From positions 43,487-107,486 of the forward strand of contig JAFUNC010000018.1 of NCBI GenBank assembly GCA_017473115.1: a stretch of DNA of 64,000 bases, read 5' to 3'. A program made the translations under genes and the position numbers. The DNA comes from Lachnospiraceae bacterium (GTDB lineage: Bacteria; Bacillota; Clostridia; Lachnospirales; Lachnospiraceae). The notes below the pieces were generated by a model, which saw only the letters and a program-made list of their open reading frames with translations, searched no databases and was not told the origin of the DNA. Shown here in pieces: positions 5,829 through 39,320 of the stretch (its first letter is position 1; each line of letters starts with the position of its first letter).

Positions 5829-6020
5829 TTTGCACTTGAAGTGTAAAGGATTGTGAGGATATTTTCATTCCATAAAGAACCGTTTTCGACTGTGTCAGCA
5901 CTTAACGAGCAGAAATGAAATGCACTGCGAGTTTAGTACTGCTACATCAGTCGAACGAGCGAGAGCGTGTTCTGTTGGAATGAAAATATCCCCACAATTC
6001 TACACCAAACTCCAAATGTA
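5829..6020 (-). ncRNA. Structured intergenic element, copy A (unrecognised family)
   Basis: This is one of three copies in the window (others at 18975 and 39171). The ~100-nt core at 5873-5975, read on the minus strand, is almost identical to copy C and clearly related to copy B. It is enclosed by a copy-specific stem: 5850-5872 pairs with 5976-5998, 22 of 23 positions, and weaker pairing extends outward to about 5829/6020. Inner helices are GAAC/GTTC, TTCGACTG/CAGTCGAA, CAGTACT/AGTGCTG and GCAG/CTGC. The minus strand is preferred as sense because the one mismatch becomes G-U there. It lies between two terminators, in the convergent gap between the dehydrogenase and rpoC. The function is unknown, and an untranscribed DNA repeat is the alternative. 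Confidence 0.7.
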
Positions 6021-6041
6021 AAAAAACGAATGTAACCACAT

Positions 6042-6075
6042 AAAAAACCCGGAAACCTAAAAGTTTCCGGGTTTT
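6042..6075 (-). terminator. Intrinsic terminator after rpoC
   Basis: The stem AACCCGGAAAC / GTTTCCGGGTT with loop CTAAAA has a T run on the minus strand and lies just after the rpoC stop. The flanking A and T runs make it potentially bidirectional. Confidence 0.93.
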
Positions 6076-6081
6076 ATCATT

Positions 6082-9000
6082 TTATTCTTCGTCTGAAACG
6101 GTTTCTTCCACTGCATCAAGATTATCAAGTTCTTCTACATCAACTTCTGTTTCAGTTGCGTCTATAAACTCTTCATCCAAAACAGTATCGGAAATTTCAC
6201 GCATGGTATCGATTTTAACGTCACGATAACGTTTCATACCTGTACCTGCAGGAATCAACTTACCGATGATAACGTTTTCTTTTAAGCCGTACAGAGGGTC
6301 AACCTTACCCTTAATTGCAGCTTCTGTAAGAACCTTCGTTGTTTCCTGGAAGGATGCTGCTGACATAAAGGAGTTGGTCGCAAGGGAAGCCTTGGTAATA
6401 CCCAAAATGATGTCCTTTGCTACTGCAGGAGCAGCATCAGGATTCTCAGCCAAAAGTTTTTCGTTTACTTCTTCCAAAACAAGTCTGTCAACAAGACTGC
6501 CGGGAAGCAAATCGGTATCTCCGCTTTCTTCTACACGCTGTTTCTTTAACATCTGGCGAACGATAACTTCAATGTGCTTGTCGTTCAAGTCTACACCCTG
6601 AAGGCTGTAAACCTTCTGAACTTCACGGATGATGTAGTTTTCAACCGCTTCAATCTTCTTAATTTCAAGTAAATCATGAGGATTGATGCTACCTTCGGTC
6701 AATTCATTACCGGCTTCAATGGTCATACCATCAAGCACTTTAATACGTGAGCCATAAGGAATCAAATAACTCTTTTCCTGCTCGTTGTTTTTGATTACAA
6801 CTTCGCGCTTCTTGGAAGTTTCTTTGATTTCCACAGTACCGCCGAACTCTGCAATAATTGCAAGTCCCTTCGGTTTTCTTGCTTCGAATAATTCTTCCAC
6901 ACGAGGAAGACCCTGTGTGATATCGTTACCCGCAACACCACCGGTATGGAATGTACGCATGGTCAACTGTGTACCGGGTTCACCGATAGACTGTGCAGCG
7001 ATAATACCAACTGCTTCACCAACCTGTACCGCTTCACCGGTAGCCATGTTGGCACCGTAACATTTCGCACAAATACCATTCTGTGATTTACAGGTTAAAA
7101 TACTTCTGATTTTAACAGTATCAATAGGGTTACCATTTTCATCCACACCAACGGAAACAATCTTTGCAGCTCTGCTGGGAGTAATCATATGGTTTCTCTT
7201 AACGATAACATTTCCGTCTTTATCAAAGATGGTATTAACAGAATATCTGCCCTTAATTCTGGTTTCAAGGCTTTCAATGTTAGCATCGCCTTCTGTAAAT
7301 GCAGATACGTTCATACCTACAATTTCATCTCTGTTTGCACAGCAATCCACATCACGTACAATCAATTCCTGACAAACGTCAACCATACGACGTGTCAAGT
7401 AACCGGAGTCCGCTGTACGAAGCGCTGTATCGGAAAGACCTTTACGCGCACCATGTGCAGACATAAAATATTCCAAAACGTCAAGACCTTCACGGAAGTT
7501 TGACTTAATAGGCAATTCAATGGTACGACCGGTTGTATCGGCCATCAAACCACGCATACCTGCAAGCTGCTTCATCTGCTGCTTAGAACCACGGGCACCG
7601 GAGTCAGCCATCATCTTAATATTATTGTAAGCATCAAGACCTGTCATCAACTCTTCTGTCAAACGATCATCGGTTGCGTTCCATACACGCTTAACGCTTT
7701 CGTATCTTTCTTCTTCGGTACACATACCACGACGATAATTCATAGCAATCTGGTCTACCTTAGCCTGAGCTTCTTCCAACAACTGTTTCTTGATAGGAGG
7801 CACTGTCATATCCGATACGGATACTGTCATTGCCGCACGGGTTGAGTACTTATAACCTGTTGCTTTTACAAGGTCAAGTACTTCTGCAGTCTTGGTAGCA
7901 CCATGCTTATTGATTACTTTGTCAAGGATCGGCTTTAACTGCTTCTTGCCAACCAAGAAATCAATTTCAAGTTTAATTGCATTCTCAGGAATGCTTCTGT
8001 CTACATATTCAAGGTCCTGAGGAAGGATTTCATTGAAGAGGAAACGTCCAAGAGTGGATTCTACAATACCCTTTACAACCGTTCCGTCTGCCAATGTTTT
8101 GGTTACACCAACCTTGATACGTGCATGTAAAGTAATTACTTCATTCTCGTATGCGAGAATTGCTTCATTCAAATCCTTAAAGAACTTACCTTCACCCTTT
8201 GCACCGGGTCTCTCCTGTGTGAGGTAGTAAATACCAAGTACCATATCCTGTGAAGGAACGGCTACGGGAGCACCGTCAGAAGGCTTCAATAAGTTGTTGG
8301 GTGAGAGCAGGAGGAAACGACATTCTGCCTGAGCCTCTACGGACAAAGGAAGATGTACCGCCATCTGGTCACCGTCAAAGTCAGCGTTGAACGCTGTACA
8401 TACCAAAGGATGGAGTTTGATTGCCTTACCTTCTACAAGGATAGGCTCAAACGCCTGAATACCAAGCCTGTGAAGTGTCGGAGCACGGTTCAACATAACC
8501 GGATGTTCACGAATTACTTCTTCCAAAACATCCCATACGGTATCATCAAGTTTTTCAACGAGTTTCTTTGCATGCTTAATGTTCTGGCTGATTCCCTTTC
8601 CAACCAATTCTTTCATAACGAAGGGTTTGAAAAGTTCGATAGCCATTTCTTTAGGAAGACCACACTGGTAAATCTTTAACTCAGGTCCAACTACGATTAC
8701 GGAACGTCCTGAATAGTCAACACGCTTACCTAACAGGTTCTGACGGAAACGTCCGGACTTACCTTTTAACATATCGGAAAGTGACTTTAATGCACGGTTT
8801 CCGGGTCCTGTTACCGCTCTTCCTCTTCTACCGTTATCAATCAAAGCATCCACTGCTTCCTGAAGCATTCTCTTTTCGTTACGCACGATAATATCGGGTG
8901 CACCCAAATCAAGAAGTCTTGCAAGACGATTGTTACGGTTGATAATTCTTCTGTATAAATCGTTCAAGTCAGAAGTAGCAAAACGTCCGCCATCCAACTG

Positions 9001-9753
9001 AACCATAGGTCTTAAATCGGGGGGAATTACCGGAATGGCATCCATAATCATCCATTCAGGTCTGTTTCCGGATTCACGGAATGCTTCCACCACTTCGAGA
9101 CGCTTCACAATCTTCGCTCTCTTCTGGCCTTTGGTGCTTTCGTTCTCTAATTCTGCTTTTAATTCTGCATTTTCTTTTTCAAGATCAATCGCAGATAAAA
9201 GTTCTTTGATTGCTTCTGCACCCATGCCAACGCGGAACTCATTGCCCCAGATTTCTCTCTGTTTCTGATATTCTACTTCAGATAAAATATCTTTTACTTT
9301 TAAATCTGTATTTCCTGCATCCAAAACGATGTAAGATGCAAAATACAATACCTTTTCAAGTACTCTCGGTGTAAGGTCAAGAATAAGACCCATACGGCTG
9401 GGAATACCCTTAAAATACCAAATGTGTGAAACGGGTGCTGCAAGTTTAATGTGACCCATTCTTTCACGACGAACATTTGCCTTGGTTACTTCTACACCAC
9501 AACGGTCACAAATAATACCTTTGTAACGTACTTTTTTGTACTTACCGCAGTGGCACTCCCAGTCCTTGCTGGGTCCGAAAATCTTTTCACAATATAAACC
9601 TTCGCGTTCCGGTTTTAAAGTTCTGTAGTTGATGGTCTCGGGCTTGGTAACCTCGCCTTTAGACCATTCTAAAATCTTTTCCGGTGACGCCAAACCGATT
9701 TTGATGGAGTCAAAACTAATCGGTTCATATATCTCTTTTTTTACATCAGACAT
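6082..9753 (-). CDS. rpoC: DNA-directed RNA polymerase subunit beta'
   Basis: Largest subunit of RNA polymerase, 1223 aa. The N-terminal zinc site [13 protein letters not shown]...CDRCG lies near residues 64-82, the catalytic magnesium loop [12 protein letters not shown] near 455, and the second zinc cluster [13 protein letters not shown] near 885. The C-terminus is acidic. I take the ATG at 9751-9753 because GGAAGGAG lies 8 bases upstream. The in-frame TTG six codons earlier overlaps that ribosome site. It is cotranscribed with rpoB, which ends 36 bases upstream, and is closed by a strong terminator. Confidence 0.98.
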
Positions 9754-9789
9754 TATTGGCACTCCTTCCAAAATTAGGCTGTCGCCTTA

Positions 9790-12700
9790 TTAGTTTTCTT
9801 CGTCATCATCAAATGCTTCGCCGAAATCCACATCTTCATCTGCGTAATCGTCTGCATACTCTTCCTCTTCGGGTTCGTCATATGCATCTGTTAATTCGCC
9901 GTCTTCGTTGAATTCCTGTTTCTGATAGCCGTAACTTGCCATATCATCACGTTCATAGTCGTATTCTCTGGCTTCGCCTTCCATCTCGAAACGATAGTTA
10001 TTGGTGGGCGGTTCAACATTTTCTCTGATTTCAACCTCTTCACCGTTTTCATCAAGTACTTTGACATCCAGACACAGGGACTGTAATTCCTTCAACAATA
10101 CCTTGAAGGATTCAGGAATACCCGGTGTAGGAATATTTTCACCCTTGATAATCGCTTCGTAGGTCTTTACACGTCCAACCACGTCGTCTGACTTAACGGT
10201 CAGGATTTCCTGTAAGGTGTATGATGCTCCGTATGCTTCCAGAGCCCAAACTTCCATTTCACCGAAACGCTGTCCACCGAACTGCGCTTTACCACCCAGA
10301 GGCTGCTGTGTAACCAATGAGTACGGTCCTGTAGAACGGGCATGAATCTTATCGTCTACAAGGTGGTGGAGTTTCAGGTAATGCATGTGACCGATGGTTA
10401 CGGGACTGTCAAAGTATTCACCCGTTCTACCGTCACGAAGTCTAACCTTACCGTCTCTTGAAATTTCAACACCCTTCCAGAGTTCTCTGTGTGCTCTGTT
10501 TTCATATAAGTATTCCAATACTTCAGGACGAAGGGTATCTTTGTGTTTTGCTTCAAACTCTTCCCATGTTGTATTAACATAGTCGTTTGCAAGGTCCAAA
10601 GTATCCATAATATCCGCTTCGTTTGCACCATCAAATACCGGAGTGGCAATGTTAAAGCCGAGGGCCTTAGCCGCCAATGACAAGTGAATTTCGAGCACCT
10701 GTCCGATATTCATACGGGAAGGTACACCCAAAGGATTCAATACGATATCCAAAGGACGTCCGTTGGGTAAGTAAGGCATATCTTCAACAGGTAATACGCG
10801 GGAAACAACACCCTTGTTACCGTGACGACCGGCCATCTTGTCACCTACGGAAATCTTTCTCTTCTGTGCAATATAGATACGTACCTTCTGGTTTACGCCG
10901 GGAGATAATTCGGAATCGCCTGCTGCTCTGGAGAATACCTTCGCATCCACAACAACACCATACTCACCGTGAGGAACCTTTAAGGATGTATCACGCACTT
11001 CTCTTGCTTTTTCACCGAAAATTGCACGGAGGAGTCTTTCTTCCGCGGTAAGTTCTGTTTCACCCTTCGGTGTAACCTTACCAACCAAAATGTCACCGGC
11101 ACGTACTTCCGCACCGATACGGATGATACCTCTGTCATCCAAATCCTTCAATGCATCTTCGCCAACGCCCGGAACATCTCTGGTAATTTCTTCCGCACCA
11201 AGTTTGGTATCACGGGCTTCTGTTTCATATTCTTCAATGTGAACAGATGTATAAACATCTTCACGTACCAATCTTTCACTTAAAAGAACAGCATCTTCGT
11301 AGTTGTAACCTTCCCATGTCATAAAACCAATCAAAGGGTTTTTACCAAGACCGAGTTCACCTTCTGCGGTAGAAGGACCGTCAGCGATTACCTGACCTTC
11401 TGCCACATGATCACCCTTAAATACGATGGGTTTCTGGTTGTAGCAGTTACTCTGGTTACTTCTTACAAACTTAGACAACTGATATTCCATTGCTTCGCCG
11501 TCATCTGCTGTAATTTTAATCAATTCGGAAGATACATAAGTTACGGTACCTGCCTTCTTGGCAACCACACACACACCGGAGTCAACCGCTGTTTTTACTT
11601 CCATACCTGTACCGATTACAGGTGCCTCTGTGAAAAGAAGGGGCACTGCCTGACGCTGCATGTTGGAACCCATCAGCGCACGGTTCGCATCGTCGTTCTG
11701 CAAGAAAGGAATCAACGCTGTAGCCACAGAGAATACCATTTTAGGAGACACGTCCATAAAATCAAACATAGCCTTCGGATATTCCTGTGTTTCCTCTCTG
11801 TAACGACCGGATACCATGTTCTTTACAAAGTGTCCGTCTGCATCTAATTTTTCGTTTGCCTGTGCTACATGATAGTTATCTTCTTCATCTGCTGTCATAT
11901 AGATAACTTCATCCGTCACACGGGGATTCTCGGGATCTGACTTATCAATACGGCGATAAGGAGCCTCTACAAATCCGTATTCATTAATTCTTGCATAAGA
12001 TGCAAGTGAGTTAATCAAACCGATGTTGGGACCTTCCGGTGTTTCAATCGGACACATTCTTCCATAGTGAGTATAGTGAACGTCTCGAACCTCGAAACCT
12101 GCACGGTCTCTGGAGAGACCACCGGGTCCTAATGCAGAAAGACGTCTCTTATGTGTCAATTCACCAAGAGGGTTATTCTGATCCATAAACTGTGACAACT
12201 GTGAAGAACCAAAGAATTCTTTGATTGCAGCCTGCACAGGTTTAATATTGATTAATTTATCGGGAGTGATGCTTTCTGAATCATGTGTTGTCATTCTTTC
12301 ACGTACAACACGTTCCATTCTGGAAAGACCGATTCTGTACTGATTCTGTAACAACTCACCAACCGCACGAATACGTCTGTTACCCAAATGGTCGATATCG
12401 TCATCATGACCGATACCATATTCCAAATGAATGTTATAGTTGATGGATGCAAGCATATCTTCCTTGGTAATGTGCTTCGGAATCAACTCCTGCGCATTAC
12501 GCATAATTGCTTCAGCCAATTCTTCCGGCTTCTCTGCATATTCGCCTAAAATTTTCTGAAGAGCAGGGAAGTAAACCAACTCTGTAATACCTAATTCTTT
12601 GGCATCACAATCAACCCATTCATTGATGTCTACCATCATATTGGAAAGAACTTTTACATTCTTTTCTTCTACCTGAATTAACACAGAAGCAACCGCTGCA

Positions 12701-13674
12701 TTCTGAATAGCATCAGCTAATTCTGCAGTCACGGTATCGCCTGCTTTCGCAATTAATTCTCCTGTGTACTCATTTACAACATCTGCTGCAAGAACATGAT
12801 TGCGGATTCTGTTCTTAAGCATAAGTTTTTTATTGAATTTATAACGTCCTACTTTTGCCAAATCATATCTTCTGGCATCAAAGAACATGGAACTCAAGAA
12901 ACTTTCAGCACTTTCCACGGTAAAAGGCTCACCGGGATGTACTTTTGCATACAATTCCTTCAAACCGTCTACATAGTTCTTAGAAGGATCCTTTGCAAAA
13001 CTTGCACGAATCTTGGGTTCATCACCAAACACCTCAAGAATCTCTTCGTCTGTTCCCAGACCAAGAGCACGAATAAATACAGTGATGGGGAATTTTCTGG
13101 TTCTGTCAACACGAACATATGCCACATCATTAGAGTCTGTTTCATACTCTAACCATGCACCACGATTCGGGATAACGGTAGACGAGAACAATTCTTTACC
13201 AATTTTATCATGTCCGATTGCATAATAAATACCGGGCGAACGCACCAACTGGCTAACGATTACTCGCTCTGCACCATTGATAACGAATGTACCTGTTTCA
13301 GTCATTAAAGGGAAATTACCCATAAAAATAGTACGTTCTATGAGATTTTCCTTCTCATTTTCATTGAAAAAGCGGACCTTTACATTCAAAGGTGCTTCAT
13401 AAGTAAGGTCTCTTTCTTTACATTCCGCAATTGTATGCTTGATTTTGTCTTCCGCAAGTTCAAAATCAACAAATTCCATGCGCAAATCACCGCCGAAATT
13501 GGTAATGGGCGAAATATCATCAAACGCTTCCTTCAAACCTTCTTCCAAGAACCACTTGTAAGAATTCTTCTGCACTTCGATGAGATTCGGCATCTCCAGA
13601 ACTTCTTTCTGACGTGAATAGCTCATACGCATACTGTTGCCGTTAACAATAGGACGTATTCTGTTCTTTTCCAT
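9790..13674 (-). CDS. rpoB: DNA-directed RNA polymerase subunit beta
   Basis: Second catalytic subunit of RNA polymerase, about 1294 aa. The rifampicin-binding cluster [18 protein letters not shown] followed by [12 protein letters not shown] looks like the susceptible type. The [12 protein letters not shown] and [11 protein letters not shown] motifs are intact. The last 70 or so residues are very acidic ([16 protein letters not shown] and on), a common extension in this group. The ATG at 13672-13674 has GGAG at a good distance, while the GTG two codons earlier is too close to it. A hairpin terminator lies between rplL and rpoB, so part of rpoB transcription may depend on read-through. Confidence 0.98.
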
Positions 13675-13879
13675 TGACACTTCACTCCGTTCTTATTATG
13701 TTATATAGCCTTTTTTGCCTATTTCTGATAACCTGTCTGATTTTTGTCCGCAAAGAATCAACCTCTTGTGTCAAAAGACAAAAAGAGACAGTAAACCACA
13801 ATAGTGCATCATCCATATTAGCAGAAAACAAGATGGAAGTCAAACATTATTTTCCATTTTTATAAAATATTTTACAACA

Positions 13880-13913
13880 TAAAAAAACCGCGAAAGAAAA
13901 CTCTTTCGCGGTT
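13880..13913 (-). terminator. Hairpin terminator/attenuator between rplL and rpoB
   Basis: AACCGCGAAAGA pairs with CTTTCGCGGTT across a short loop and is followed by a run of seven T on the minus strand. It should partly terminate rplJL transcripts and lower RNA polymerase subunit synthesis relative to L7/L12. The 200 bases between it and rpoB may hold a further promoter, but I see no convincing one. Confidence 0.88.
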
Positions 13914-13934
13914 CATATTCACTCCGGGTAAAAA

Positions 13935-14315: not shown

Positions 14316-14370
14316 TTTATTTTCCTCCATTTTAAAATATTGTTTGTTCTAAAAGTTTCAAATGCAACAA

Positions 14371-14871: not shown

Positions 14872-14922
14872 TTTGTTTTACCTCCTTCTTTATTTCGTGC
14901 CGAAAGAGTTTTTATAAAGAAT

Positions 14923-15050
14923 AAAAAACCTCTCATCTTCGCAGAAGACGAGAGGGTAAAAATTCATTCAAAATCTACTCATCCTCGGTAGGCGTTGTCT
15001 CCTTACGTCGCTTAGCGACACCTACTGTCTTCGGCGCGGTTGCTTTTACA
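14923..15050 (-). promoter_or_regulatory. L10 leader with attenuator hairpin
   Basis: The RNA upstream of rplJ carries the conserved L10-leader elements CCGAAGACAGTAGGTG and GCCTACCGAGG (about 14985-15030). They form the L10(L12)4 binding fold also found in 23S rRNA. A strong hairpin with arms CCTCTCGTCTTC / GAAGATGAGAGG and a TTTTTT tail follows at 14923-14955. The arrangement fits excess L10 stabilising the terminator conformation, as known for this leader family. The attenuation mechanism is inferred from that knowledge. Confidence 0.85.
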
Positions 15051-15059
15051 ACCTCAATA

Positions 15060-18974: not shown

Positions 18975-19118
18975 GCAGGGCGTAGGATTTCTTTGCAGGA
19001 CACGCTCCCGCTCGCTTCTGCCGCGTAACGGTACTAAACTCGAAGTCTTGTATACAAGCCTTCTCATTAAGTACCGACGGGCAGAAAAACGGTCCTCAAA
19101 GAAATTCCTACGCCCTGC
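18975..19118 (+). ncRNA. Structured intergenic element, copy B (unrecognised family)
   Basis: This is the most diverged of the three copies. The enclosing stem is 18975-18995 with 19097-19118, about 21 bp with a single one-base bulge. Its sequence is unlike the stems of A and C. Core motifs shared with A and C are ACACGCTC-Y-CGCTCG, GTACTAAACTCG, TTAAGT and AAAACGG. The helices are kept by paired changes: GGAC/GTCC (GAAC/GTTC in C), TTCTGCC/GGCAGAA (TTCGACTG/CAGTCGAA in C), CGGTACT/AGTACCG and GAAG/CTTC. A 4-bp extension CTTG-TATA-CAAG caps the last helix. It lies between the hydrolase 3' end and the rpmG promoter. Confidence 0.72.
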
Positions 19119-30513: not shown

Positions 30514-30537
30514 CCCGCGAATTATATATCACGTTTA

Positions 30538-31866
30538 TTATTTGTTATCAATATGATAAGTTCTCTTAATTCCTTCTGTAGGATTTGCTCCTACAGTATT
30601 TCTTGTGGCTCCGGCCGCTCCCGATGCCTTATTGACCTGCGACACTGTTCTTGTCGCCGCACTTCCTACCGAACGGGTTCCCACACTGCTAGCGGTACTT
30701 CTTGTACCTGTATTCACCGAACTTCTGACAGCAGCCCCCGGCACACCTTTGACGCCGCTTCCCGTTGCACTTACTCCGGTTCTTGCTGTCGAACTCACTG
30801 TTCTTCCGGTTCTGGCAGCGGTTCTTTCGCCGGAATCACCGGTCGTTTTGGCAGTTCTTTCTCTTGCCGCTTCATTCTGTTCGCTCACAGTCCGCGCGAT
30901 TTTCTCCCGGCTCTGCTCGCGTTTTTCTGCCGTACTTGAACTTTTACCGGATACTTTCTTTACCTTTATTTCCGGAGTTGAAATGGTAATTTTAGGTACT
31001 GCTTTTACATAATAATAATATTCATCATCTTCAAACTGCACACGCTCTGTACGGGCATAATCCACGTTGAACACAAAAAACTGCAAAACTTTTACGACGC
31101 CGAAAGCAAGTGCACTGCCCAAAATCACACCGAGAATGGAAATATTGGTGGTATACATCAAATCACCGATAAGCAGAATTAAAATATCCGCAAGACCGCC
31201 CACAATAATTGCTATGGTCCACGCATAATCAATATTCATTCTGCGAACAACATATACCAATATAACAGTAACCGCAAATGCAATGACCATTACGAACATC
31301 TCTTTATTGCCGATGATACCGTCAATCAAATACTTGAATTTTGCCATCATACCATCCGCATCCAATGCAGAAAGGGCATTTGCCGACTCTTTGATATATC
31401 GCAAAATATGATATACCACTACACCGCATCCCACCGAAACCACAGATGCAGGTGTACCTACCAATCCAAGCGATAAAGGAATCGCATAGGGAATCTGAAG
31501 TACACAACAAATCGGCGTTAAAATTACCACAAATGTATCCTTCGGCGAAAAACGAAAATATAAAAGGAACATCAAAAGATAAATTACACCTACAATAATT
31601 GCGCATTCCATCGACAATGCATATACATGCAACAGAGATAAAAGTGCTCCGCAAATTATAATAAAATTAACGGGAAGAAACGAACAAAGTAACGCCAGAA
31701 TTAAAGCAATCGGAAACTTTGCCACTTTCTCCATATAACCTAAGTTTGCGTTGATAATCAAAAAAGTAATCAAAGACGCAAGGAATTTACCAATCGGTAC
31801 CAAATACACTTCGTATTTGCCGCATAGTTTTTTCAGTTGTTCTCGTATTACCAACAATTGTGTCAT
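30538..31866 (-). CDS. Unknown polytopic membrane protein with Ser/Thr/Arg-rich tail
   Basis: A 442-aa protein I do not recognise. Roughly eight hydrophobic helices lie between residues 24 and 275. A 160-residue charged, low-complexity tail follows, rich in Ser, Thr, Arg, Gly and Ala (for example RTAARTGRTVSSTARTG). The tail probably faces the cytoplasm because of its basic charge. It overlaps the preceding gene as TAATG, so the two are translationally coupled, and cdaA follows 24 bases later. A link to envelope or c-di-AMP biology is suggested only by position. Confidence 0.75.
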   Translation of the reverse strand: MTQLLVIREQLKKLCGKYEVYLVPIGKFLASLITFLIINANLGYMEKVAKFPIALILALLCSFLPVNFIIICGALLSLLHVYALSMECAIIVGVIYLLMFLLYFRFSPKDTFVVILTPICCVLQIPYAIPLSLGLVGTPASVVSVGCGVVVYHILRYIKESANALSALDADGMMAKFKYLIDGIIGNKEMFVMVIAFAVTVILVYVVRRMNIDYAWTIAIIVGGLADILILLIGDLMYTTNISILGVILGSALAFGVVKVLQFFVFNVDYARTERVQFEDDEYYYYVKAVPKITISTPEIKVKKVSGKSSSTAEKREQSREKIARTVSEQNEAARERTAKTTGDSGERTAARTGRTVSSTARTGVSATGSGVKGVPGAAVRSSVNTGTRSTASSVGTRSVGSAATRTVSQVNKASGAAGATRNTVGANPTEGIKRTYHIDNK

Positions 31867-32273
31867 TATTGCGTTTTATCCTTTCTTTCTCTTTGGTAGA
31901 GAATCTGGAGTCTCTTTAAATTATTAAAGTATACCTTCAAACGACGTTTCGCCTTCCGGTAACGAATTGCATAGATGATATAAGAAATTAATACATACAC
32001 ACCCGTAAAAATAAAATAGTACAGAATCAATTTCTTCAAATATTCCAGAATATCAATTTTATAAATATCCGATAAAAACAATTCGGAATCATACAATACG
32101 AAAAGACCTACTATCAATAAGAATGCAAGGGTTGCACTGATTACCGACTTCAGAATCTGGAGACTGATATAATCTCCCCGGAAATAAGAACCGATTTCTT
32201 CATTCTTTTTTCCTTCCTTCTGTTCGTAAGCAGCAAGTCTTGTCATTAATTTCACACGCTGTTCACTAATCAT
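31866..32273 (-). CDS. Unknown small membrane protein with two helices
   Basis: A 135-aa protein I do not recognise. A charged N-terminus (about 40 residues) is followed by two hydrophobic segments (about 45-63 and 82-106) and a very basic tail (RYRKAKRRLKVYFNNLKRL). The stop codon overlaps the start of the next membrane protein (TAATG), suggesting the pair form a complex. AGAGG precedes the ATG. It comes 38 bases after the flagellar-operon zinc protein. Confidence 0.75.
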   Translation of the reverse strand: MISEQRVKLMTRLAAYEQKEGKKNEEIGSYFRGDYISLQILKSVISATLAFLLIVGLFVLYDSELFLSDIYKIDILEYLKKLILYYFIFTGVYVLISYIIYAIRYRKAKRRLKVYFNNLKRLQILYQRERKDKTQ

Positions 32274-32311
32274 AATAACCTCTGTCTCAATTTGACTTTA
32301 TCAACCGTTTC

Positions 32312-32719
32312 CTAATCCAGATAACGCATTCTGGGATTATCCTTCGGATCCTTACGCGCAGGCGCAGGTGCTTCCAATTTCGGCTTGGTAATATTGGTAA
32401 TACCTCTTGCCAAATCAATCTTACACTTATCGCAAAAACGTCCGGTTTTAATCATGGCACCACAGCCCTCACAATTAATACCAATAGGAGAATCCTCAGC
32501 AAAAACCAAACGCTCCTGGCGAATCCACTGATTCACCTGGGTGTGGCTGACATCACACTGCTCCACAATTTCATTAATACCTGCCGTTTTGCAATCCTGT
32601 ACGAACTTCTTAACTTCTTGGAACTTTTCCTCTTCCAATTCACGACAAGCCTGACAAATAGGCACACCTGATATATAGTTAAATACCTTACCACATTTTC
32701 TGCAATTTCGTACGTCCAT
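32312..32719 (-). CDS. Flagellar operon protein, YvyF type
   Basis: A 135-aa protein of the flagellar-operon family TIGR03826. It has an N-terminal zinc knuckle (CRKCGKVF and CQAC, residues 6-22), a helix-turn-helix-like middle (IVEQCDVSHTQVNQWIRQER near 52) and a second cysteine set (CEGCGAMIKTGRFCDKCK near 83). Its job is not established. In bacilli it sits between comF and flgM. Here it directly follows comF with 33 bases between, and no flgM is next to it. Confidence 0.85.
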   Translation of the reverse strand: MDVRNCRKCGKVFNYISGVPICQACRELEEEKFQEVKKFVQDCKTAGINEIVEQCDVSHTQVNQWIRQERLVFAEDSPIGINCEGCGAMIKTGRFCDKCKIDLARGITNITKPKLEAPAPARKDPKDNPRMRYLD

Positions 32720-32752
32720 TTTTACCCTCCCAATGAATGCTTTTAAACAGCA

Positions 32753-33559
32753 CTACAAGCCCTTTCCGATTGCCAGGGCTATAAAAAATACTTTCTCTGC
32801 ACCTCCGCGCTTTAATTCTAAAGCCGCGGACTCAATGGTGTTTCCTGTAGTGAATACATCATCCACCAGTATAATCGTCTTTAATTTTACATCATTTTTG
32901 ACCATATGAAAAGCCTTTTTCATATTATTTTGTCGCGTTATGTGGTCCATTTTTTTCTGAGATGCGGTTTTTCGTACTCTGATAAGGATATCCTCCCTTA
33001 CCGGGATACCTGTCGCTCTTGAAATCTCCTTTGCCAAAAGTGCAGCCTGATTATATCCCCGGCTTCTTAATTTGGATGAATGCAAGGGAATTGGTACCAA
33101 TGCATCCCCTCCCATCCGTTTGATTGCGGGCAATAAAAACTGCCGCATCCGGCTTCCGTAAAAGGTTGCATACTCAGCCCGTCCTAAATTTTTAAAGGCA
33201 TGAATGGAATCATGGACCGATGCATATTCATATAGGGCAACACCCCATTCGAAATTTCTTCTTTTCCCGCCGCAGTCTCTGCATCTGACCTGCTCCTGCT
33301 GCTCCAAATGTTTGCTGCAGCAGACACATCGCGGTGCTTTTACCAAGCGGGGAATATCACTGCAATCTTTACAAATTAATACTTCTCTTCCCGCCAACAC
33401 CGTATCGCAAACAGGACAATGTCTGGGAAAAAAGAAATCTTTTATCGCTTCCGAATATTTATCTTTTGCAGAACGTAACTTATATTCTTTCTCTTTCGTG
33501 CAACTTCTCTTAACCGTTTTATCTTCGGTTGCTACGTTCTTACCAAAATTAATTTTCAC
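32753..33559 (-). CDS. comF: ComF family phosphoribosyltransferase-like protein
   Basis: A 268-aa ComF protein linked to late steps of DNA uptake in transformable bacteria. It has an N-terminal double zinc ribbon (CPVCDTVLAGREVLICKDC, then CVCCSKHLEQQEQVRCRDC, residues 50-100). A phosphoribosyltransferase domain follows, with the PRPP loop TIILVDDVFTTGNTIE near 230. The start is a GTG overlapping the end of recD2 by 11 bases. Competence itself cannot be inferred from this gene alone. Confidence 0.92.
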   Translation of the reverse strand: MKINFGKNVATEDKTVKRSCTKEKEYKLRSAKDKYSEAIKDFFFPRHCPVCDTVLAGREVLICKDCSDIPRLVKAPRCVCCSKHLEQQEQVRCRDCGGKRRNFEWGVALYEYASVHDSIHAFKNLGRAEYATFYGSRMRQFLLPAIKRMGGDALVPIPLHSSKLRSRGYNQAALLAKEISRATGIPVREDILIRVRKTASQKKMDHITRQNNMKKAFHMVKNDVKLKTIILVDDVFTTGNTIESAALELKRGGAEKVFFIALAIGKGL

Positions 33560-35795
33560 TCACCTCTTTGATTCTGTTCTTGAAATCCGTATATCGTTTC
33601 TGTTCATCACCTCTTGCAATCATTTGTCGCACGGTTTCCTTACTGCCGAGGATTACAACACTTTTTGACGCTCTGGTCACCGCCGTATACAAAAGATTAC
33701 GGTTAAAAAGCATCCTGGGGCCATCCAACAAAGGTAAAACCACCGCCGGATATTCACCGCCTTGGGATTTATGAATGGTAATGGCATAAGCCAGTTCCAG
33801 TTCTTCCAACTGTCCGTTTGGATATTCTACCTGCCGGTTGTCATCAAACATAACGGTAAGGCTTTTATTGTATTCATCAATTCGTTTTATTACCCCTACG
33901 TCACCGTTAAAAACACCCTTGCCCTCGTCAACCTTGATTTCATTATAGCCCCTTATAACCCATACCGCTTCATAATTGTTCTTAATCTGCATCACCTTAT
34001 CGCCCACACGGAAAATCCGTTCTCCCCTGCAGATTTCCTTTTTATTTCCGTCCGGCGGGTTTAATTTTTGCTGTAAAATAATATTCAGATTTTCCACCCC
34101 GAGATTGCCCTTGCGCATAGGCGTAAGCACCTGTATCTCATAGGGTTTTACCCCTAAAAAGCGTGGTAATTTTTCTTCGGTCAGGGATACAATTTCATTG
34201 TGGATTACCGACACATCATTTCGCTCCACACAACAGAATTCCCTGCTCTCATTGCCGAGCACCACATCCTCGCCGCGATTGATTTTATGCGCATTGATTA
34301 CGATGTCGCTTTCCAGACTTTGCCGGTATATCTTTTCTAATTTTACAACCGGATAAGCCTTGCTGTTCAATAAATCTTTTAATACATTTCCGGGGCCTAC
34401 CGAAGGAAGTTGGTCTACATCGCCGGCCATAATCAGCCTTGTTCCCGTTGCGATTGCCTTCACAAGCGCATAAAACAGTGAAATATCTACCATAGACATC
34501 TCATCAATAATGATAACGTCTGCCTCCAATGGATTATATTCATTTCGACCAAATTCCGCACGTTCTTCACCGCCTTCATCGTGTACCCCGCTTACCTCCA
34601 GCAAACGATGAATGGTTTTCGCCATATATCCCGTCGTTTCTTCCATACGCTTCGCTGCCCGTCCCGTAGGTGCCGCCAAAACGACATTGTGCTTGGTACG
34701 AACATAATACTCGATAATGGTACGCATTGTTGTGGTTTTTCCCGTACCCGGACCGCCGGTCAAAATAAAAACGCCGTTGCGGATGGCTTCCATAACCGCT
34801 TCCTTCTGCAAATCATCCAGTTCTGCCTGTCCCTCCCGCAAAATATCCTCAACACAACTGTTCACATCCTGCCGCGCTTCTTCCGACAATTCATATCCGT
34901 CGTACGCCTCCTGTAAACGTTTCATTTCTCTGGCACAGGTAAGTTCTGCATAATAAAAGTAACTCAGAAAAACCTTAACCTCTTCTTCTGTGCTTTTCAT
35001 TACAATTTTTCTATCAAACAGTAAATCCGTCAGCGCCGGCTCCAATGCATCTTTGCTTACCTCAAGAATATCAGCCGAACGCTCTAACAACTCTTTTTGC
35101 GGTAAAAAAGTATGTCCCTCCGCTGCCGCCAATTGTAAACAATATAAAATGCCGCCTTTCATGCGGTCCTCCGAATCCGCAGACATTCCCAACTTCATGG
35201 CAATTTCGTCTGCCGTCTTAAAACCGATGCCTTTCACATCTTCCGCCAATTTATACGGATTTTCCTTTAAAATGCTGTACATTGCAATTCCGTACTTCTC
35301 ATATATACGTACTGCCAGTGTATTTCCCACACCATATTCCTGCAAATAAAGCATTGCATCCCGGAGTTCTTTCTTATCAGCCATTTGTCCGGCAATTTCC
35401 CGGGCTTTATTTTCACTGATACCTTTTACCTCGGCCAACCGTTCCGGTTCTTCCTCCATAATGCGAAACGTATCCTCGCCGAATTTCTTTACAATGCGCA
35501 TGGCCAATGCCGGGCCAATGCCTTTGATAGCTCCGGAAGCGAGATACTTTTCCACGGAAATCGTATCCGGCGGCGGAAGAATTTTATAAGTCTTATACTT
35601 AATCTGAGGGCCGTAATTCGGATGCTCTACCATATCGCCATCCAATTCCACATAATCCCCTTTTTCAATTCCTTTACTCAATCCTGCACAGGTTACTTCT
35701 CCTTCATCCAGGTCTTCCGTTACAAGCACAAAAACACCATAGCCGTTTTCCTGACTTCGAAATTTGAAATTGTCAACATAGCCTTTTATAATCAT
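33549..35795 (-). CDS. recD2: RecD2-type ATP-dependent DNA helicase
   Basis: A 748-aa superfamily 1 5'-3' helicase of the RecD2/TraA type that works without RecBC. An N-terminal OB-like part (GYVDNFKFRSQENGYGVFV) and helix-hairpin-helix repeats come first. Walker A is TGGPGTGKTTTMRT near residue 345, Walker B is VIIIDEMSMVD near 430, and the C-terminal motif ELAYAITIHKSQGGEYP is near 680. I prefer the ATG at 35793-35795 after GGGAG. The longer reading runs into the upstream terminator. ComF overlaps its end. Confidence 0.94.
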   Translation of the reverse strand: MIIKGYVDNFKFRSQENGYGVFVLVTEDLDEGEVTCAGLSKGIEKGDYVELDGDMVEHPNYGPQIKYKTYKILPPPDTISVEKYLASGAIKGIGPALAMRIVKKFGEDTFRIMEEEPERLAEVKGISENKAREIAGQMADKKELRDAMLYLQEYGVGNTLAVRIYEKYGIAMYSILKENPYKLAEDVKGIGFKTADEIAMKLGMSADSEDRMKGGILYCLQLAAAEGHTFLPQKELLERSADILEVSKDALEPALTDLLFDRKIVMKSTEEEVKVFLSYFYYAELTCAREMKRLQEAYDGYELSEEARQDVNSCVEDILREGQAELDDLQKEAVMEAIRNGVFILTGGPGTGKTTTMRTIIEYYVRTKHNVVLAAPTGRAAKRMEETTGYMAKTIHRLLEVSGVHDEGGEERAEFGRNEYNPLEADVIIIDEMSMVDISLFYALVKAIATGTRLIMAGDVDQLPSVGPGNVLKDLLNSKAYPVVKLEKIYRQSLESDIVINAHKINRGEDVVLGNESREFCCVERNDVSVIHNEIVSLTEEKLPRFLGVKPYEIQVLTPMRKGNLGVENLNIILQQKLNPPDGNKKEICRGERIFRVGDKVMQIKNNYEAVWVIRGYNEIKVDEGKGVFNGDVGVIKRIDEYNKSLTVMFDDNRQVEYPNGQLEELELAYAITIHKSQGGEYPAVVLPLLDGPRMLFNRNLLYTAVTRASKSVVILGSKETVRQMIARGDEQKRYTDFKNRIKEVSEN

Positions 35796-35813
35796 CAAAA
35801 ACTCCCACAATAA

Positions 35814-35847
35814 GAAAAACAGACCTGACACCATCGGACAGGTCTGT
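35814..35847 (-). terminator. Terminator after the FlgJ-like gene
   Basis: ACAGACCTGTCC pairs imperfectly with TGTCAGGTCTGT and is followed by TTTTTC on the minus strand, 18 bases after the rod-protein stop. It closes the mreB-flgF-flgG-flgJ unit before recD2. Confidence 0.85.
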
Positions 35848-35864
35848 AAGAACTTTGTCAAAAA

Positions 35865-36218
35865 TTATACTTCGTAATTTCGTTTCATCTGTTCATACAA
35901 AGTCTGCGCAAGACCCATATTACTCTGTTCAGCAGTCTGTGCTGACACTTTCTTAATCATTTCATCTTTGTAGTAATCTACCAAGGTGGAATTAGCACTT
36001 GAGGTCAATTCCGACTCCGGTATGGTCTTCATCATTTCTTTGTACATCTGTTCCAGAAAATATGCTTCAAACTCCTTGCACACTTCCATCAATTCTTCAT
36101 CGGTTGCTTTGGAATAATCCGCACCTGACACCTTCTTGGTCAGAGCGTCCGTCTTCGCATTACCCGAAATACTTTCGGCATACTGGCTGTATGCTGATGT
36201 CAAACCGCTGATATCCAT
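35865..36218 (-). CDS. Rod-binding protein, FlgJ N-terminal type
   Basis: A 117-aa protein with the rod-binding domain of FlgJ only: EEL...CKEFEAYFLEQMYKEMMKTIPES near residues 40-70 and SNSTLVDYYKDEMIKKVSAQTAEQ. It lacks the muramidase half of proteobacterial FlgJ, as usual in Firmicutes. It probably caps or chaperones rod assembly. It comes 28 bases after flgG. Confidence 0.88.
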   Translation of the reverse strand: MDISGLTSAYSQYAESISGNAKTDALTKKVSGADYSKATDEELMEVCKEFEAYFLEQMYKEMMKTIPESELTSSANSTLVDYYKDEMIKKVSAQTAEQSNMGLAQTLYEQMKRNYEV

Positions 36219-36246
36219 TTAGCCACACACCCTTTCTAATGCACTA

Positions 36247-37062
36247 CTATCTTCTTAAATTGTTTGCCTGCTGCATCATTTCATCGGAAGCCTGAATCGC
36301 CTTGGAATTCAATTCATAGGCTCTCTGGGCAACAATCATATTTACCATTTCGTCTGCGACCTGTACGTTGGAACCTTCCAAATATCCCTGTCTTAATTCA
36401 CTACGTACAAGACTGTCATTGGTATACTCATTCATTGCTCCGCCGCTGGCTGCTGATTCCGAGAACAAACCGCTGTCTTTTTTCTCCAGGCCGGAAGGAT
36501 TGTTAAACTGCCAAAGACCGATTTCAATGCCCAAAGGCTGGGGATTGTTTGCCTCGTCCGGGTAACAAATCTGACCGTCTGCAGTTACGGTAATCTGACT
36601 GGCTACAAAACTTTCATCAAAAGTAATCGGCTTACCGTCTGCATCCAAAACCTTTAATCCGTCTGTGGTTGTTAACGCCAGTCCCTTGGTATCCGTAGCC
36701 AAAACAAAGTTACCGTTTCTTGTATAATATGTATTACCATCCTGTCCTTTTACCCCAAAGAATCCGTCTCCGTTGATGGCAAATGCCAAATCATTGCTGG
36801 AATCCAAAAATGCACCCTGGGTAAAAACGGATGTAATTGCCGAATTTCGTACACCCAATCCAACCTGCGAAGGAATAGGTTTTTGTTCTGAATTTGCCGA
36901 AGTGGATTTTGAATTAATATCCTGATATAAAAGGGACTTAAACTCTGCCACTTCTGTTTTATAACCGCTTGTATTTACATTTGCAAGATTATTTGCAATC
37001 GTATCCACATTATTCTGCTGGGCAATCATACCGGATGCCGCTGTCCAAAGTGATCTTACCAT
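36247..37062 (-). CDS. flgG: Flagellar basal-body rod protein, FlgG/FlhP type
   Basis: A 271-aa distal rod-type protein. The N-terminus VRSLWTAASGMIAQQNNVDTIANNLAN and the C-terminus VNMIVAQRAYELNSKAIQASDEMMQ are the signature helical ends of axial flagellar proteins. It has the FINGDGFFGV core near residue 100. It is placed after the flgF-like gene and mreB, equivalent to flhP of bacilli. Exported by the flagellar type III system, so there is no signal peptide. Confidence 0.92.
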   Translation of the reverse strand: MVRSLWTAASGMIAQQNNVDTIANNLANVNTSGYKTEVAEFKSLLYQDINSKSTSANSEQKPIPSQVGLGVRNSAITSVFTQGAFLDSSNDLAFAINGDGFFGVKGQDGNTYYTRNGNFVLATDTKGLALTTTDGLKVLDADGKPITFDESFVASQITVTADGQICYPDEANNPQPLGIEIGLWQFNNPSGLEKKDSGLFSESAASGGAMNEYTNDSLVRSELRQGYLEGSNVQVADEMVNMIVAQRAYELNSKAIQASDEMMQQANNLRR

Positions 37063-37074
37063 CTGCTATCCCTC

Positions 37075-37866
37075 CTATTGTAATTTACCAAGCTGATTGA
37101 CTGAAATCTGTAACGTTTCATCGTACGCCTGCAATATCTTCTGATTGGATTCATACTGTCTTGTAACGCTAATCAATTCTACCATTTCACGTACTACCTG
37201 AACATTAGACGCTTCCAAATATCCGGATTGTACTTTGGCGGAAGATTCCGTAATTTCCGCACCTTCTACCGGCTGATAAAAGTTTTCGCCGTAGTGCTCC
37301 AAATAATTATAATCCTCAAAATCCGTAATCTGTAAGGTTGCAAGGACCTGATCATTTTGAATTACGCGTCCTTCCGTATCAATGGCAGCCGCATGCGTCG
37401 GGTCAATCTTAATATGTCCTACTTCGCCGTTGGCGCCCTTACCAAGAACATAATCGCCGTCTTTGGTTACCAGATAACCTTCTTTGGTCAAAGTAAAGGA
37501 ACCGTCTCTGGTGTACATAGTGGAAGTCTCTCCGGCACGATTTGTATACTCAATGGTAAAAAATCCTTCTCCCGATAATGCCAAATCGTATGTATTTCCG
37601 GTCTCACGGAACGAACCCTGGGAATAATCGGTATAGGTTTCACCTATTTTTACACCGGGATTGTTATTACCTAAATACACACCGCCGGCATACCCATCCT
37701 GTTCATCCTTGATTCGATATGCCAACATGGCATCAAACGTCTGGCTGGTTGCTCCCTCTGCCTTGTAACCCGTCGTTGCCGAATTTGCAAGGTTATTGGT
37801 AAGTACATCCATTCTATTCTGTTCGTTTACCATACCGCTGTATGCAGTGTACAATCCTTTTAACAT
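37075..37866 (-). CDS. flgF: Flagellar basal-body rod protein, FlgF/FlhO type
   Basis: A 263-aa axial flagellar protein with N-terminus LKGLYTAYSGMVNEQNRMDVLTNNLAN and C-terminus VREMVELISVTRQYESNQKILQAYDE. The LALSGEGFFTIEY core is near residue 87. It corresponds in position to flhO of bacilli, downstream of mbl/mreB. It is followed by the flgG-like gene after 12 bases. Confidence 0.92.
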   Translation of the reverse strand: MLKGLYTAYSGMVNEQNRMDVLTNNLANSATTGYKAEGATSQTFDAMLAYRIKDEQDGYAGGVYLGNNNPGVKIGETYTDYSQGSFRETGNTYDLALSGEGFFTIEYTNRAGETSTMYTRDGSFTLTKEGYLVTKDGDYVLGKGANGEVGHIKIDPTHAAAIDTEGRVIQNDQVLATLQITDFEDYNYLEHYGENFYQPVEGAEITESSAKVQSGYLEASNVQVVREMVELISVTRQYESNQKILQAYDETLQISVNQLGKLQ

Positions 37867-37938
37867 ACGTTTTTGACCTTTCTTTCGGTTCCTGCAACAA
37901 CGGTTAGGTTACGATAGCATGTCCGTTAAAACAACTGC

Positions 37939-38934
37939 TTACGGTTCTTCACGATTGTCTGCAAGGAACTCAACATATTTACCTGTTCCGATTGCAACAC
38001 ATGTCATAGGTTCTTCTGCGGTCATTGTGTTAATGCCGGTTCTGGATTCAATCAAATCTTCCAAACCTCTCAACATACTTCCGCCACCGGTTAAAACAAT
38101 ACCTCTGTCAGCAATATCCGCTGCCAACTCAGGAGGTGTTTTCTCCAATACGCTATGAATTGCTTCTACAATCTGGGATGTGGTTTCCTTTAATGCTTCT
38201 TCCGTTTCTTCCGAAGAAACTTTTACGGTGTTGGGAAGACCTGTTACCAGGTTACGTCCTCTTACATCCATATAATCAACCTCGGCACGCTTGTATGCGG
38301 AACCGATTTTAATTTTAATATCTTCTGCAGTTCTTTCACCAATCATAAGATTGTGTTTCTTTCTCATATAACGAATCAACGCTTCGTCAAAATCGTCGCC
38401 GGCAATCTTAATGGATTCGCTGACAACGGTTCCGCCTAATGAAATAACCGCAATGTCTGAAGTACCGCCACCAATATCTACGATCATATTACCGCAAGGT
38501 TTGCCGATATCAATCCCTGCACCGATCGCTGCTGCAATAGGTTCTTCAATGATTGCCACTTCTCTTGCACCTGCCTGATAAGTAGCATCTTCTACTGCCT
38601 TACGCTCAACTTCGGTTACACCACTGGGCACACATACCGCAATACGGGGTTTACGGAAGGTCTTCTTTCCAAGAGCCTTCTGAATAAAATACTTCATCAT
38701 CTTTTCGGTAACGGTATAGTTAGAAATAACACCCTGACGTAACGGTCTTACCGCTACAATGTTTCCGGGGGTTCTACCAAGCATAAGACGCGCATCCTCA
38801 CCGATAGCCTTAATCTTATTGGTATCGCGATCAAAAGCAACCACTGAGGGTTCTTTTAACACTACACCTTTACCTCTTATATAAACCAGAATACTGGCTG
38901 TTCCCAAGTCAATTCCTATATCTGTATATTGCAT
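37939..38934 (-). CDS. mreB: Rod shape-determining protein MreB/Mbl
   Basis: A 331-aa actin-like protein that guides cell-wall synthesis along the side wall. The phosphate-1 loop IGIDLGTASILVYIRGKG is at residues 6-23, phosphate-2 MIVDIGGGTSDIAVISLGG near 157, and the adenosine motif GIVLTGGGSMLRGLEDL near 283. It leads the unit mreB-flgF-flgG-flgJ, the same order as mbl-flhO-flhP in Bacillus, so by context it is the Mbl paralogue. No mreC or mreD lies beside it. Confidence 0.95.
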   Translation of the reverse strand: MQYTDIGIDLGTASILVYIRGKGVVLKEPSVVAFDRDTNKIKAIGEDARLMLGRTPGNIVAVRPLRQGVISNYTVTEKMMKYFIQKALGKKTFRKPRIAVCVPSGVTEVERKAVEDATYQAGAREVAIIEEPIAAAIGAGIDIGKPCGNMIVDIGGGTSDIAVISLGGTVVSESIKIAGDDFDEALIRYMRKKHNLMIGERTAEDIKIKIGSAYKRAEVDYMDVRGRNLVTGLPNTVKVSSEETEEALKETTSQIVEAIHSVLEKTPPELAADIADRGIVLTGGGSMLRGLEDLIESRTGINTMTAEEPMTCVAIGTGKYVEFLADNREEP

Positions 38935-38985
38935 ATCTCTTCTCCTTCCTAAGGATTCTGTTTACATTTTTACCCAATCTAAGTA

Positions 38986-39014
38986 ATTATAACCCAATCG
39001 CAAGGAAAATCAAA
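38986..39014 (-). promoter_or_regulatory. Vegetative promoter of mreB
   Basis: TATAAT (38986-38991) is preceded by TTTGAT (39009-39014) at 17 bases, or TTGATT at 16, on the minus strand. The leader would be about 45 bases. Confidence 0.65.
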
Positions 39015-39044
39015 GAGTTTTACACTAAAAAATATAAGAAAAAC

Positions 39045-39100
39045 GCAAAAAGAACGCAGTAATCACAAGTGTCGGCTCCGTCCGACCTTTTACTACGTCC
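39045..39100 (-). terminator. Long hairpin terminator between uvrA and mreB
   Basis: GGACGTAGTA pairs with TACTGCGTTC using two G-U pairs, with an inner GTCGG/CCGAC stem, and the hairpin ends in TTTTT on the minus strand. It lies after element copy C and before the mreB promoter, so it probably ends uvrA transcripts. Confidence 0.65.
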
Positions 39101-39115
39101 TTGTTTCTGCCATTT

Positions 39116-39143
39116 ATATCGGCAAAAAATCTTTGATTCTTAA
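39116..39143 (-). promoter_or_regulatory. Possible sigma-D (flagellar) promoter
   Basis: An exact GCCGATAT (39116-39123) is preceded at 16 bases by TTAA (39140-39143) on the minus strand, close to the sigma-D/FliA pattern TAAA-N14-16-GCCGATAT. It points toward mreB and the rod genes, but a terminator-like hairpin lies between. Confidence 0.35.
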
Positions 39144-39170
39144 CCTTTAGGGATAGTTTTTTATAATGAC

Positions 39171-39320
39171 GGTGCGGATTATTTTATATTCCGTAACGAA
39201 CACGCTCTCGCTCGTTCGACTGATGTAGCAGTACTAAACTCGCAGCGCATTCCATTTCTGCTCGTTAAGTGCTGACACAGTCGAAAACGGTTCTTTGCGA
39301 AATATAAAATAATCCGCACC
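39171..39320 (+). ncRNA. Structured intergenic element, copy C (unrecognised family)
   Basis: The enclosing stem 39171-39196 / 39295-39320 matches at 24 of 26 positions, with a sequence (GGTGCGGATTATTTTATATT) unrelated to the stems of copies A and B. The core is nearly identical to copy A, differing mainly inside the GCAG/CTGC-capped hairpin. On the plus strand one helix has a U-G pair (CAGTACT/AGTGCTG) that would be a C-A mismatch on the other strand, which favours plus as sense. It lies 34 bases after the uvrA stop. No ORF or T-tail is associated with it. Confidence 0.73.

What the first reader, a model, noticed from the sequence alone, without database searches (positions are those of the whole stretch)
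5829..39320. Three-copy structured intergenic element with compensatory base changes
Copies at 5829-6020 (minus), 18975-19118 (plus) and 39171-39320 (plus) share a ~100-nt core. Copies A and C are nearly identical, and copy B differs at many positions. In B the helices survive by paired changes: GAAC/GTTC becomes GGAC/GTCC, TTCGACTG/CAGTCGAA becomes TTCTGCC/GGCAGAA, CAGTACT/AGTGCTG becomes CGGTACT/AGTACCG and GCAG/CTGC becomes GAAG/CTTC. Unpaired stretches stay fixed (ACACGCTC-Y-CGCTCG, ACTAAACTCG, TTAAGT, AAAACGG). Conserved loops with covarying stems are what a functional RNA, or a DNA hairpin recognised by a protein, looks like. I do not recognise the family. Three copies in 64 kb implies many per genome if the density holds.
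Basis: seen in the sequence. Interest (0 to 1): 0.8.

Follow-up and report, generated by a model that had tools for sequence, protein, structure and literature searches.

The report
Widespread hairpin-shaped mobile DNA repeat
The three look-alike stretches are copies of a short, non-coding, hairpin-shaped piece of DNA that looks mobile and that many gut bacteria carry dozens of times per genome; its matched base changes look like RNA evolution but bear the marks of DNA, which makes it a new, common variant of a known kind of genomic repeat.

Summary
In detail: three copies of one structured element with real compensatory changes. The model finds 45 copies in this 2.23-Mb genome, matches in 24 of 25 genus genomes, own included, and in 106 of 240 genomes sampled from the family. 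No Rfam family matches.

It does not look like RNA. Paired changes are Watson-Crick: over three alignments 6011 WC, 116 G-U and 106 A-C cells, so neither strand is favoured. Copies lie mostly between genes in mixed orientation. At 14 orthologous sites in sister species the arms mostly stay while the core is exchanged for one like other copies in the same genome.

In one relative (G063) the roughly 186-bp unit has inverted ends; 7 of 14 units have 9-10-bp direct repeats with at most one mismatch, and 8 of 14 sit inside terminator-like inverted repeats. Best reading: a non-autonomous MITE/REP-like DNA hairpin that inserts into hairpin loops, kept palindromic by arm copying plus selection. No transposase was found, and direct repeats were not seen in the window's own genus. 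Conserved mismatches and a constant 13-15-nt loop suggest a protein recognises the folded DNA.

The parts
5819..6031 (-). Copy A, whole palindrome by eye (outer arms plus core), between the rpoC gene's terminator and a convergent iron-containing alcohol dehydrogenase gene
   Evidence: Pfam; the same site has the element in G001 (L253) and no model match in G041 (L254)
5866..5984 (-). Copy A, core as modelled
   Evidence: G000:C18:49352-49470
5956..5970 (-). Copy A, conserved segment ACACGCTCTCGCTCG
18975..19118 (+). Copy B, whole palindrome
18986..19106 (+). Copy B, core as modelled
   Evidence: G000:C18:62472-62592
19000..19014 (+). Copy B, conserved segment ACACGCTCCCGCTCG
39133..39357 (+). 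Copy C, whole palindrome by eye including an outer TTGATTCTT/AAGAATCAA pair; the far end overlaps the stop codon of the uvrA ORF 39354-42224 (-)
39185..39304 (+). Copy C, core as modelled
   Evidence: G000:C18:82671-82790
39200..39214 (+). Copy C, conserved segment ACACGCTCTCGCTCG
6041..6072 (-). Terminator-like hairpin and T run after rpoC, directly before copy A (by eye; context, not part of the element)

Best explanation
The element is a non-autonomous, hairpin-forming mobile DNA repeat (MITE/REP-like). Shown: a core of about 100 nt with a conserved 13-15-nt one-sided internal loop and conserved symmetric mismatches, in the middle of longer arms that differ between copies yet mostly stay complementary; many copies per genome; one site occupied in two species and empty in a third; cores that resemble other copies of the same genome more than the orthologue; and, in one relative, inverted ends, direct repeats of about 10 bp and insertion inside hairpins. 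Inferred: a transposase acting in trans inserts the unit into the loop of an existing hairpin, often an intrinsic terminator, so that host stem and element arms become one long palindrome. Template switching and gene conversion copy one arm or core from another, which keeps pairs Watson-Crick without wobble intermediates, while recognition of the folded core by a protein keeps the loop and mismatches fixed.
For: 45 copies in the own genome; 24 of 25 genus genomes, 0-58 matches each. WC 6011, G-U 116, A-C 106; 51 of the 116 G-U cells are at one pair; 14 tRNAs gave G-U 16, A-C 0. Fixed A.A and T.C/C.T mismatches. At the rpoC site model matches in G000 and G001 and none in G041. In 14 orthologous pairs at least one member's core is closer to a same-genome copy in 13 and both members' in 11, whereas arms are closest to the orthologue in 9. 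G063: 14 units, 7 with direct repeats of at least 9 bp and at most 1 mismatch; summed repeat score 70.5 against a permuted mean of 8.1 and maximum of 45.5; rebuilt empty sites fold at mean -14.4 against permuted -9.3, SD 0.74, 0 of 300 as low; 10 of 14 have flanking inverted repeats of 6 bp or more, 8 of 14 next to a T or A run. Passages stating that template switching homogenises inverted-repeat arms: PMC8604942.
Against: No autonomous element or transposase was found. Y1_Tnp is in 17 of 31 genus genomes, not in G000, and none of the 30 Y1 loci held contains an element. DDE_Tnp_1 gave 3 matches just above cut-off in 2 of 6 genomes, none with an element within the stretch held. Direct repeats at constant ends were seen only in G063: 3 of its 14 units have none and 3 have three mismatches, 4 of 14 lack a flanking inverted repeat. 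They were not evident in the own genus (by eye) nor consistent in G057 and G060. Ends differ between genera, so one transposase is unlikely to serve all. In tandem settings the element points with the genes in 32 and against in 15 rows, orthologues counted more than once, and in 7 of 71 rows an open frame of 80 or more codons crosses the element, not examined further. In Schwartzia some copies lie between a stop codon and a strong terminator, which leaves a role in 3' UTRs open.
Confidence: 0.62

Rival explanations
1. A structured RNA family (trans-acting or in 3' UTRs) that happens to be present in many copies.
For: Strong helix covariation and fixed loops; some orientation bias, 32 rows with against 15 opposed; in Schwartzia 13 of 21 copies have an open frame of 90 or more codons ending within 130 nt before the core and 6 of 21 a strong terminator after it.
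Against: G-U and A-C equally rare; arms differ so much between copies that no common promoter was seen (by eye; promoters were not scanned); mixed orientation; 0 to 58 copies within a genus; no Rfam match.
Confidence: 0.12
2. The core is a separately mobile hairpin cassette that a site-specific recombinase or HUH enzyme exchanges between palindromic docking sites as folded single-stranded DNA, somewhat as integrases use attC.
For: Same core in the middle of unrelated palindromes in different genera (by eye); cores exchanged while arms stay; a 4-nt hotspot in each arm in G660 (24 of 104 cells against 40 of 2028).
Against: No recombinase was searched for beyond Y1; in G063 and G660 arms and core were amplified together; core-less G063 unit L410 keeps part of one inner arm only, so looks like a deletion; plain gene conversion also explains the exchange.
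Confidence: 0.18
3. Pure mutational outcome: an old palindromic repeat kept complementary by quasipalindrome correction alone, with no selection on structure.
For: Watson-Crick paired changes; arm homogenisation by template switching is documented (passages of PMC8604942).
Against: Correction would erase the A.A mismatch (kept in 98 of 99 rows) and the T.C and C.T mismatches (85 of 99 each); the one-sided loop is kept in many genera of the family and in at least one other family.
Confidence: 0.08

Closest known systems
REP sequences (GTAG and CGTC super-families) and REPINs
   Same: Palindromes in many copies, mainly downstream of genes, often as oppositely oriented pairs; CGTC REPs also lack a dedicated transposase (PMC3733652, abstract and passages). 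The core has GTAR before and CGTC (complement of GACG) after its inner hairpin.
   Different: REPs are 20-40 bp with an unpaired tag at one end (same paper); this is a core of about 100 nt in palindromes of roughly 140-330 bp (by eye) with a large conserved internal loop; the tag-like bases are internal and vary (GTAA/GTAG, GACG/GACA).
MITEs of bacteria (for example RUP, BOX, ERIC/IRU)
   Same: Short, non-coding, hairpin-forming, intergenic; in G063 with inverted ends and direct repeats.
   Different: No parent insertion sequence found; a conserved structured core shared by units whose ends differ between genera; insertion inside terminator-like hairpins. What I say of ERIC, RUP and BOX is recalled or from passages of PMC10969869.
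Integron attC sites
   Same: Function through a folded single strand with structure conserved over sequence (recalled).
   Different: Copies are dispersed rather than in arrays; no integrase was searched for; the attC end boxes were not tested with a program.
Group IIC introns
   Same: Insertion next to intrinsic terminators (recalled).
   Different: A 186-bp unit is too short for an intron with its reverse transcriptase; intron domains were not tested beyond the Rfam scans.

Membership tests
Any described RNA family (Rfam 15) | Score above gathering threshold | tested here: not met
   Window and copies B and C at relaxed threshold (two chance-level matches for C, none for B); 14 relatives' loci: one match, unrelated to the element
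Structured RNA | G-U tolerated, A-C not, on one strand | tested here: not met
   116 G-U against 106 A-C over three alignments; tRNA control 16 against 0 (the tRNA finder itself favours pairing)
MITE | Non-coding, multicopy, intergenic | tested here: met
   7 of 71 rows have an open frame of 80 or more codons across the element, not examined
MITE | Terminal inverted repeats and target duplication | tested here: inconclusive
   met in G063 only (7 of 14 units with clean direct repeats); not evident in the own genus (by eye) nor in G057 and G060
MITE | Ends shared with an autonomous transposon | tested here: inconclusive
   35 end-motif matches in G063 gave paired units of 81, about 186 and 723 bp (pairs read by eye); 12 stretches fetched, 8 printed, only L411 checked for ORFs; many transposase families were not searched
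REP/REPIN (RAYT) | RAYT gene flanked by the repeat | tested here: not met
   0 of 30 Y1_Tnp loci contain the element (30 of 34 matches were held); of three RAYT-like loci looked at, two carry their own repeats around the gene and one has a nearby palindrome
REP/REPIN (RAYT) | 20-40 bp hairpin with terminal GTAG or CGTC tag | tested here: not met
   size and internal position of the tag-like bases
attC | Arrays with integrase and conserved end boxes | not tested
   no arrays seen in the loci read; integrase and end boxes not searched

The most novel reading that the evidence does not exclude
A new class of mobile DNA in which a conserved folded core, recognised as a DNA hairpin, spreads by entering the loops of other hairpins (terminators and its own copies), builds nested palindromes, and is exchanged between docking sites as a cassette.
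Probability: 0.2. Interest if true: 0.85.

Novelty: new variant of a known kind. Interest (0 to 1): 0.6.

Why it matters
It is in about 44% of the genomes sampled from its family (106 of 240), a family that record titles name Lachnospiraceae (the G001 contig has the length of a contig so titled). None of the listings and passages I saw in ten searches of an open-licence library names it; three of those searches returned nothing, and supplementary tables, such as the candidate list of PMC8040213, could not be opened. It also shows that significant helix covariation is not proof of RNA: the balance of G-U and A-C cells can separate RNA from DNA palindromes, which bears on automated RNA-family discovery. 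If it targets terminator loops, it gives a testable transposition mechanism.

Tried and rejected
Rfam at both thresholds: nothing at the element. Phages and plasmids by blastn with copy C alone: none. Viral contigs by one pattern: 2 matches, neither found by the model, so treated as chance. Y1/RAYT partner: no link. DDE_Tnp_1 partner: a 597-aa transposase-like protein in G063 whose stretch lacks the G063 end motif at its ends, and two hits in Oribacterium whose ends were not examined. Recurrent neighbour gene: the largest protein clusters (15, 13 and 11 loci) looked by eye like common families; none was annotated and none looked like a transposase. Transposase between facing copies: three of 19 stretches fetched were listed and held ordinary-looking genes. 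Two automatic definitions of ends were too lenient or partial; one search is not used. The literature gave REP and MITE work but not this element.

Corrections: my notebook says arms were closer to the orthologue in 11 of 14 pairs; a recount gives 9 of 14. A notebook entry speaks of about 20 facing pairs; 16 were listed, two of them at orthologous sites.
Full report
CHECK. The three copies exist where stated. The conserved segment ACACGCTCYCGCTCG with up to 2 mismatches has 40 matches in the own genome against 1 for the reversed control. Of 41 candidates listed from the fetched loci 3 that did not resemble the element were dropped; the other 38 were aligned, and a covariance model, R1, was built from 18 of them. 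R1 finds 45 copies in the own genome.

ANATOMY. From outside in: arms that differ between copies but mostly pair; a short helix (GAAC/GTTC in copies A and C); a one-sided internal loop with the near-constant ACRCGCTYNCGCTCG on the 5' side and AAACG on the 3' side; helix P2; a small loop (GTAR opposite A); helix P3 with a constant A.A mismatch; tandem T.C/C.T mismatches; and helix P4 with a variable end loop. Searches give per-pair counts: 28 of 32 pairs in the genus set and 27 of 32 in the wider set change on both sides.

RNA OR DNA. In A4, A3 and A5 (99, 78 and 39 distinct rows) there are 2873, 2083 and 1055 Watson-Crick cells, 49, 40 and 27 G-U, 52, 31 and 23 A-C, and 153, 159 and 71 other cells. 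Fifty-one of the 116 G-U cells are at one pair, where T.G is fixed in a subfamily. A-C on one strand is G-T on the other, so neither strand is preferred. Several pairs pass between A-T and G-C in dozens of rows with no wobble row. Cells count sequences, not events. Fourteen tRNAs from the fetched loci and the window gave 284 WC, 16 G-U and 0 A-C, though the tRNA finder itself favours pairing. This is what arms copied from, or selected against, each other as DNA would give. Template switching is reported to homogenise inverted-repeat arms (PMC8604942, abstract and passages). Selection still seems needed: the fixed mismatches (98, 85 and 85 of 99 rows) would be erased by arm copying alone.

DISTRIBUTION. 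Genus: 24 of 25 genomes including the own; other families of the order: 0 of 16 genomes. Phylum sample with model R2 (built from A3): 5 of 398, four in the own family including the own genome and one in another family. Family sample: 106 of 240 genomes, 105 of 239 genera. In some searches only 9 and 16 candidates per genome were scored, so these are lower bounds. R1 gives 79 matches (E up to 1) over 80 of them plus the two viral stretches and 39 (E up to 0.01) over the other 33; loci of unrelated groups such as Streptomyces, Haloarcula or Betaproteobacteria gave none and are taken as chance pattern matches. Loci with matches include Butyrivibrio, Oribacterium, Acetatifactor, Agathobacter, Eubacterium, Kineothrix, Mediterraneibacter, Robinsoniella, Schwartzia and a MAG labelled Gastranaerophilales, whose label may be wrong. 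Eighteen genomes behind such loci hold 3 to 147 matches, 150 candidates being scored in each.

CONTEXT AND MOBILITY. In G000, G001 and G019 the nearest open frames are tandem with the element in 32 rows, tandem against in 15, convergent in 9, divergent in 10, one side unknown in 5, of 71 rows (orthologues counted more than once; in 7 rows an open frame of 80 or more codons crosses the element, not examined). At copy A, between rpoC and an Fe-alcohol dehydrogenase (Pfam), R1 matches G000 and G001 and none of 12 other congeners' rpoC stretches; of those G041 alone keeps, by eye, the alcohol-dehydrogenase neighbour, so it is the clean empty site. Of 30 G000 loci, 14 matched an occupied site in G001 or G019 on both sides; one more matched on one side only. 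There the arms align but core helices are replaced by others, still paired (by eye). In the nearest-neighbour test (62 of 69 loci usable) the core of at least one partner is closer to a same-genome copy in 13 of 14 pairs, of both partners in 11, while arms are closest to the orthologue in 9 of 14. A maximum over many paralogues is favoured by chance; the arms, tested the same way, are the control.

ENDS AND TARGET. In G063 units begin CAATRTCATT and end with its complement. Of 14 units, 12 are 185-187 bp and hold the core (8 by motif, 4 by eye); L410 is an 81-bp core-less derivative and L411 a 723-bp palindrome with the same ends. Seven of 14 have direct repeats of 9 bp or more with at most 1 mismatch, 1 more has 2 mismatches, 3 have 3, and 3 have none. 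The summed score is 70.5 against a permuted mean of 8.1 and maximum of 45.5 in 2000. With one repeat removed, the joined flanks fold (RNA parameters) at a mean of -14.4 against -9.3 (SD 0.74, minimum -12.5, 300 permutations; the permuted sites used a fixed 10-base repeat). Ten of 14 have a perfect flanking inverted repeat of 6 bp or more, and in 8 of 14 it abuts a T or A run as in an intrinsic terminator, for example L413, L371 and L412; 4 of 14 have none (no permutation). One of these, L373, sits inside the core of another copy. In Schwartzia, of 21 copies listed, 13 have an open frame of 90 or more codons ending within 130 nt before the core, 6 a strong terminator after it, 6 a weak one and 9 none. 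In the own genus ends are old and no direct repeats are evident by eye, so extension to the window copies is inference.

UNEXPLAINED. In G660, 13 nearly identical units differ most at a 4-nt spot in each arm: 24 of 104 cells against 40 of 2028 elsewhere. The spot was chosen after seeing it. A similar 2-nt spot in 7 G511 units gives 5 of 28 against 27 of 1008. Sixteen close pairs of copies, less than about 600 bp apart, read by eye, all face each other (listed); two are orthologous, and one overlapping double hit (L162) was left out. A pair in the other order lies about 0.9 kb apart in G001:C38.

PLACE AMONG KNOWN THINGS. It works like a MITE or a large REP. It is not a REP by size and tag position, and no link to a RAYT was seen. 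MITE features are met in one relative except for the parent element. Papers seen: PMC3733652 (abstract, outline and passages), PMC8604942 (abstract and passages), PMC8040213 and PMC10969869 (passages); others as search listings only.

Noticed in passing
L445-L457 (G660): Near-identical copies with a 4-nt hypervariable, roughly complementary spot at the same place in both arms; cause unknown.
   Followed up: partly
L411 (G063:C73:976-1698): A 723-bp palindrome with the same ends and a 9-bp direct repeat with one mismatch, but no core and no ORF longer than 64 codons inside it.
   Followed up: partly
L410 and L414 (G063): Core-less derivatives that look like deletions across the hairpin.
   Followed up: partly
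L135, L143, L149, L100, L096, L082, L093, L158 and others: Close copies occur as facing pairs; in Schwartzia L352 the pair shares, by eye, one terminator between them.
   Followed up: partly
L393, L395-L397, L399, L400, L402 (G060): The element sits inside another repeated palindrome and the composite is present several times.
   Followed up: no
L278, L280 (congeners): RAYT-like genes flanked by their own GGGACGG repeats, unrelated to this element; in L282 a GGGACGG palindrome lies near the gene.
   Followed up: partly
window 14914-15052 (-): Ordinary ribosomal protein L10 leader (Rfam RF00557).
   Followed up: no
window 63540-63827 (-): Three tRNA genes.
   Followed up: no
L117 4081-4216 (-), Oribacterium parvum: Clostridiales-1 sRNA match, unrelated to the element.
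   Followed up: no
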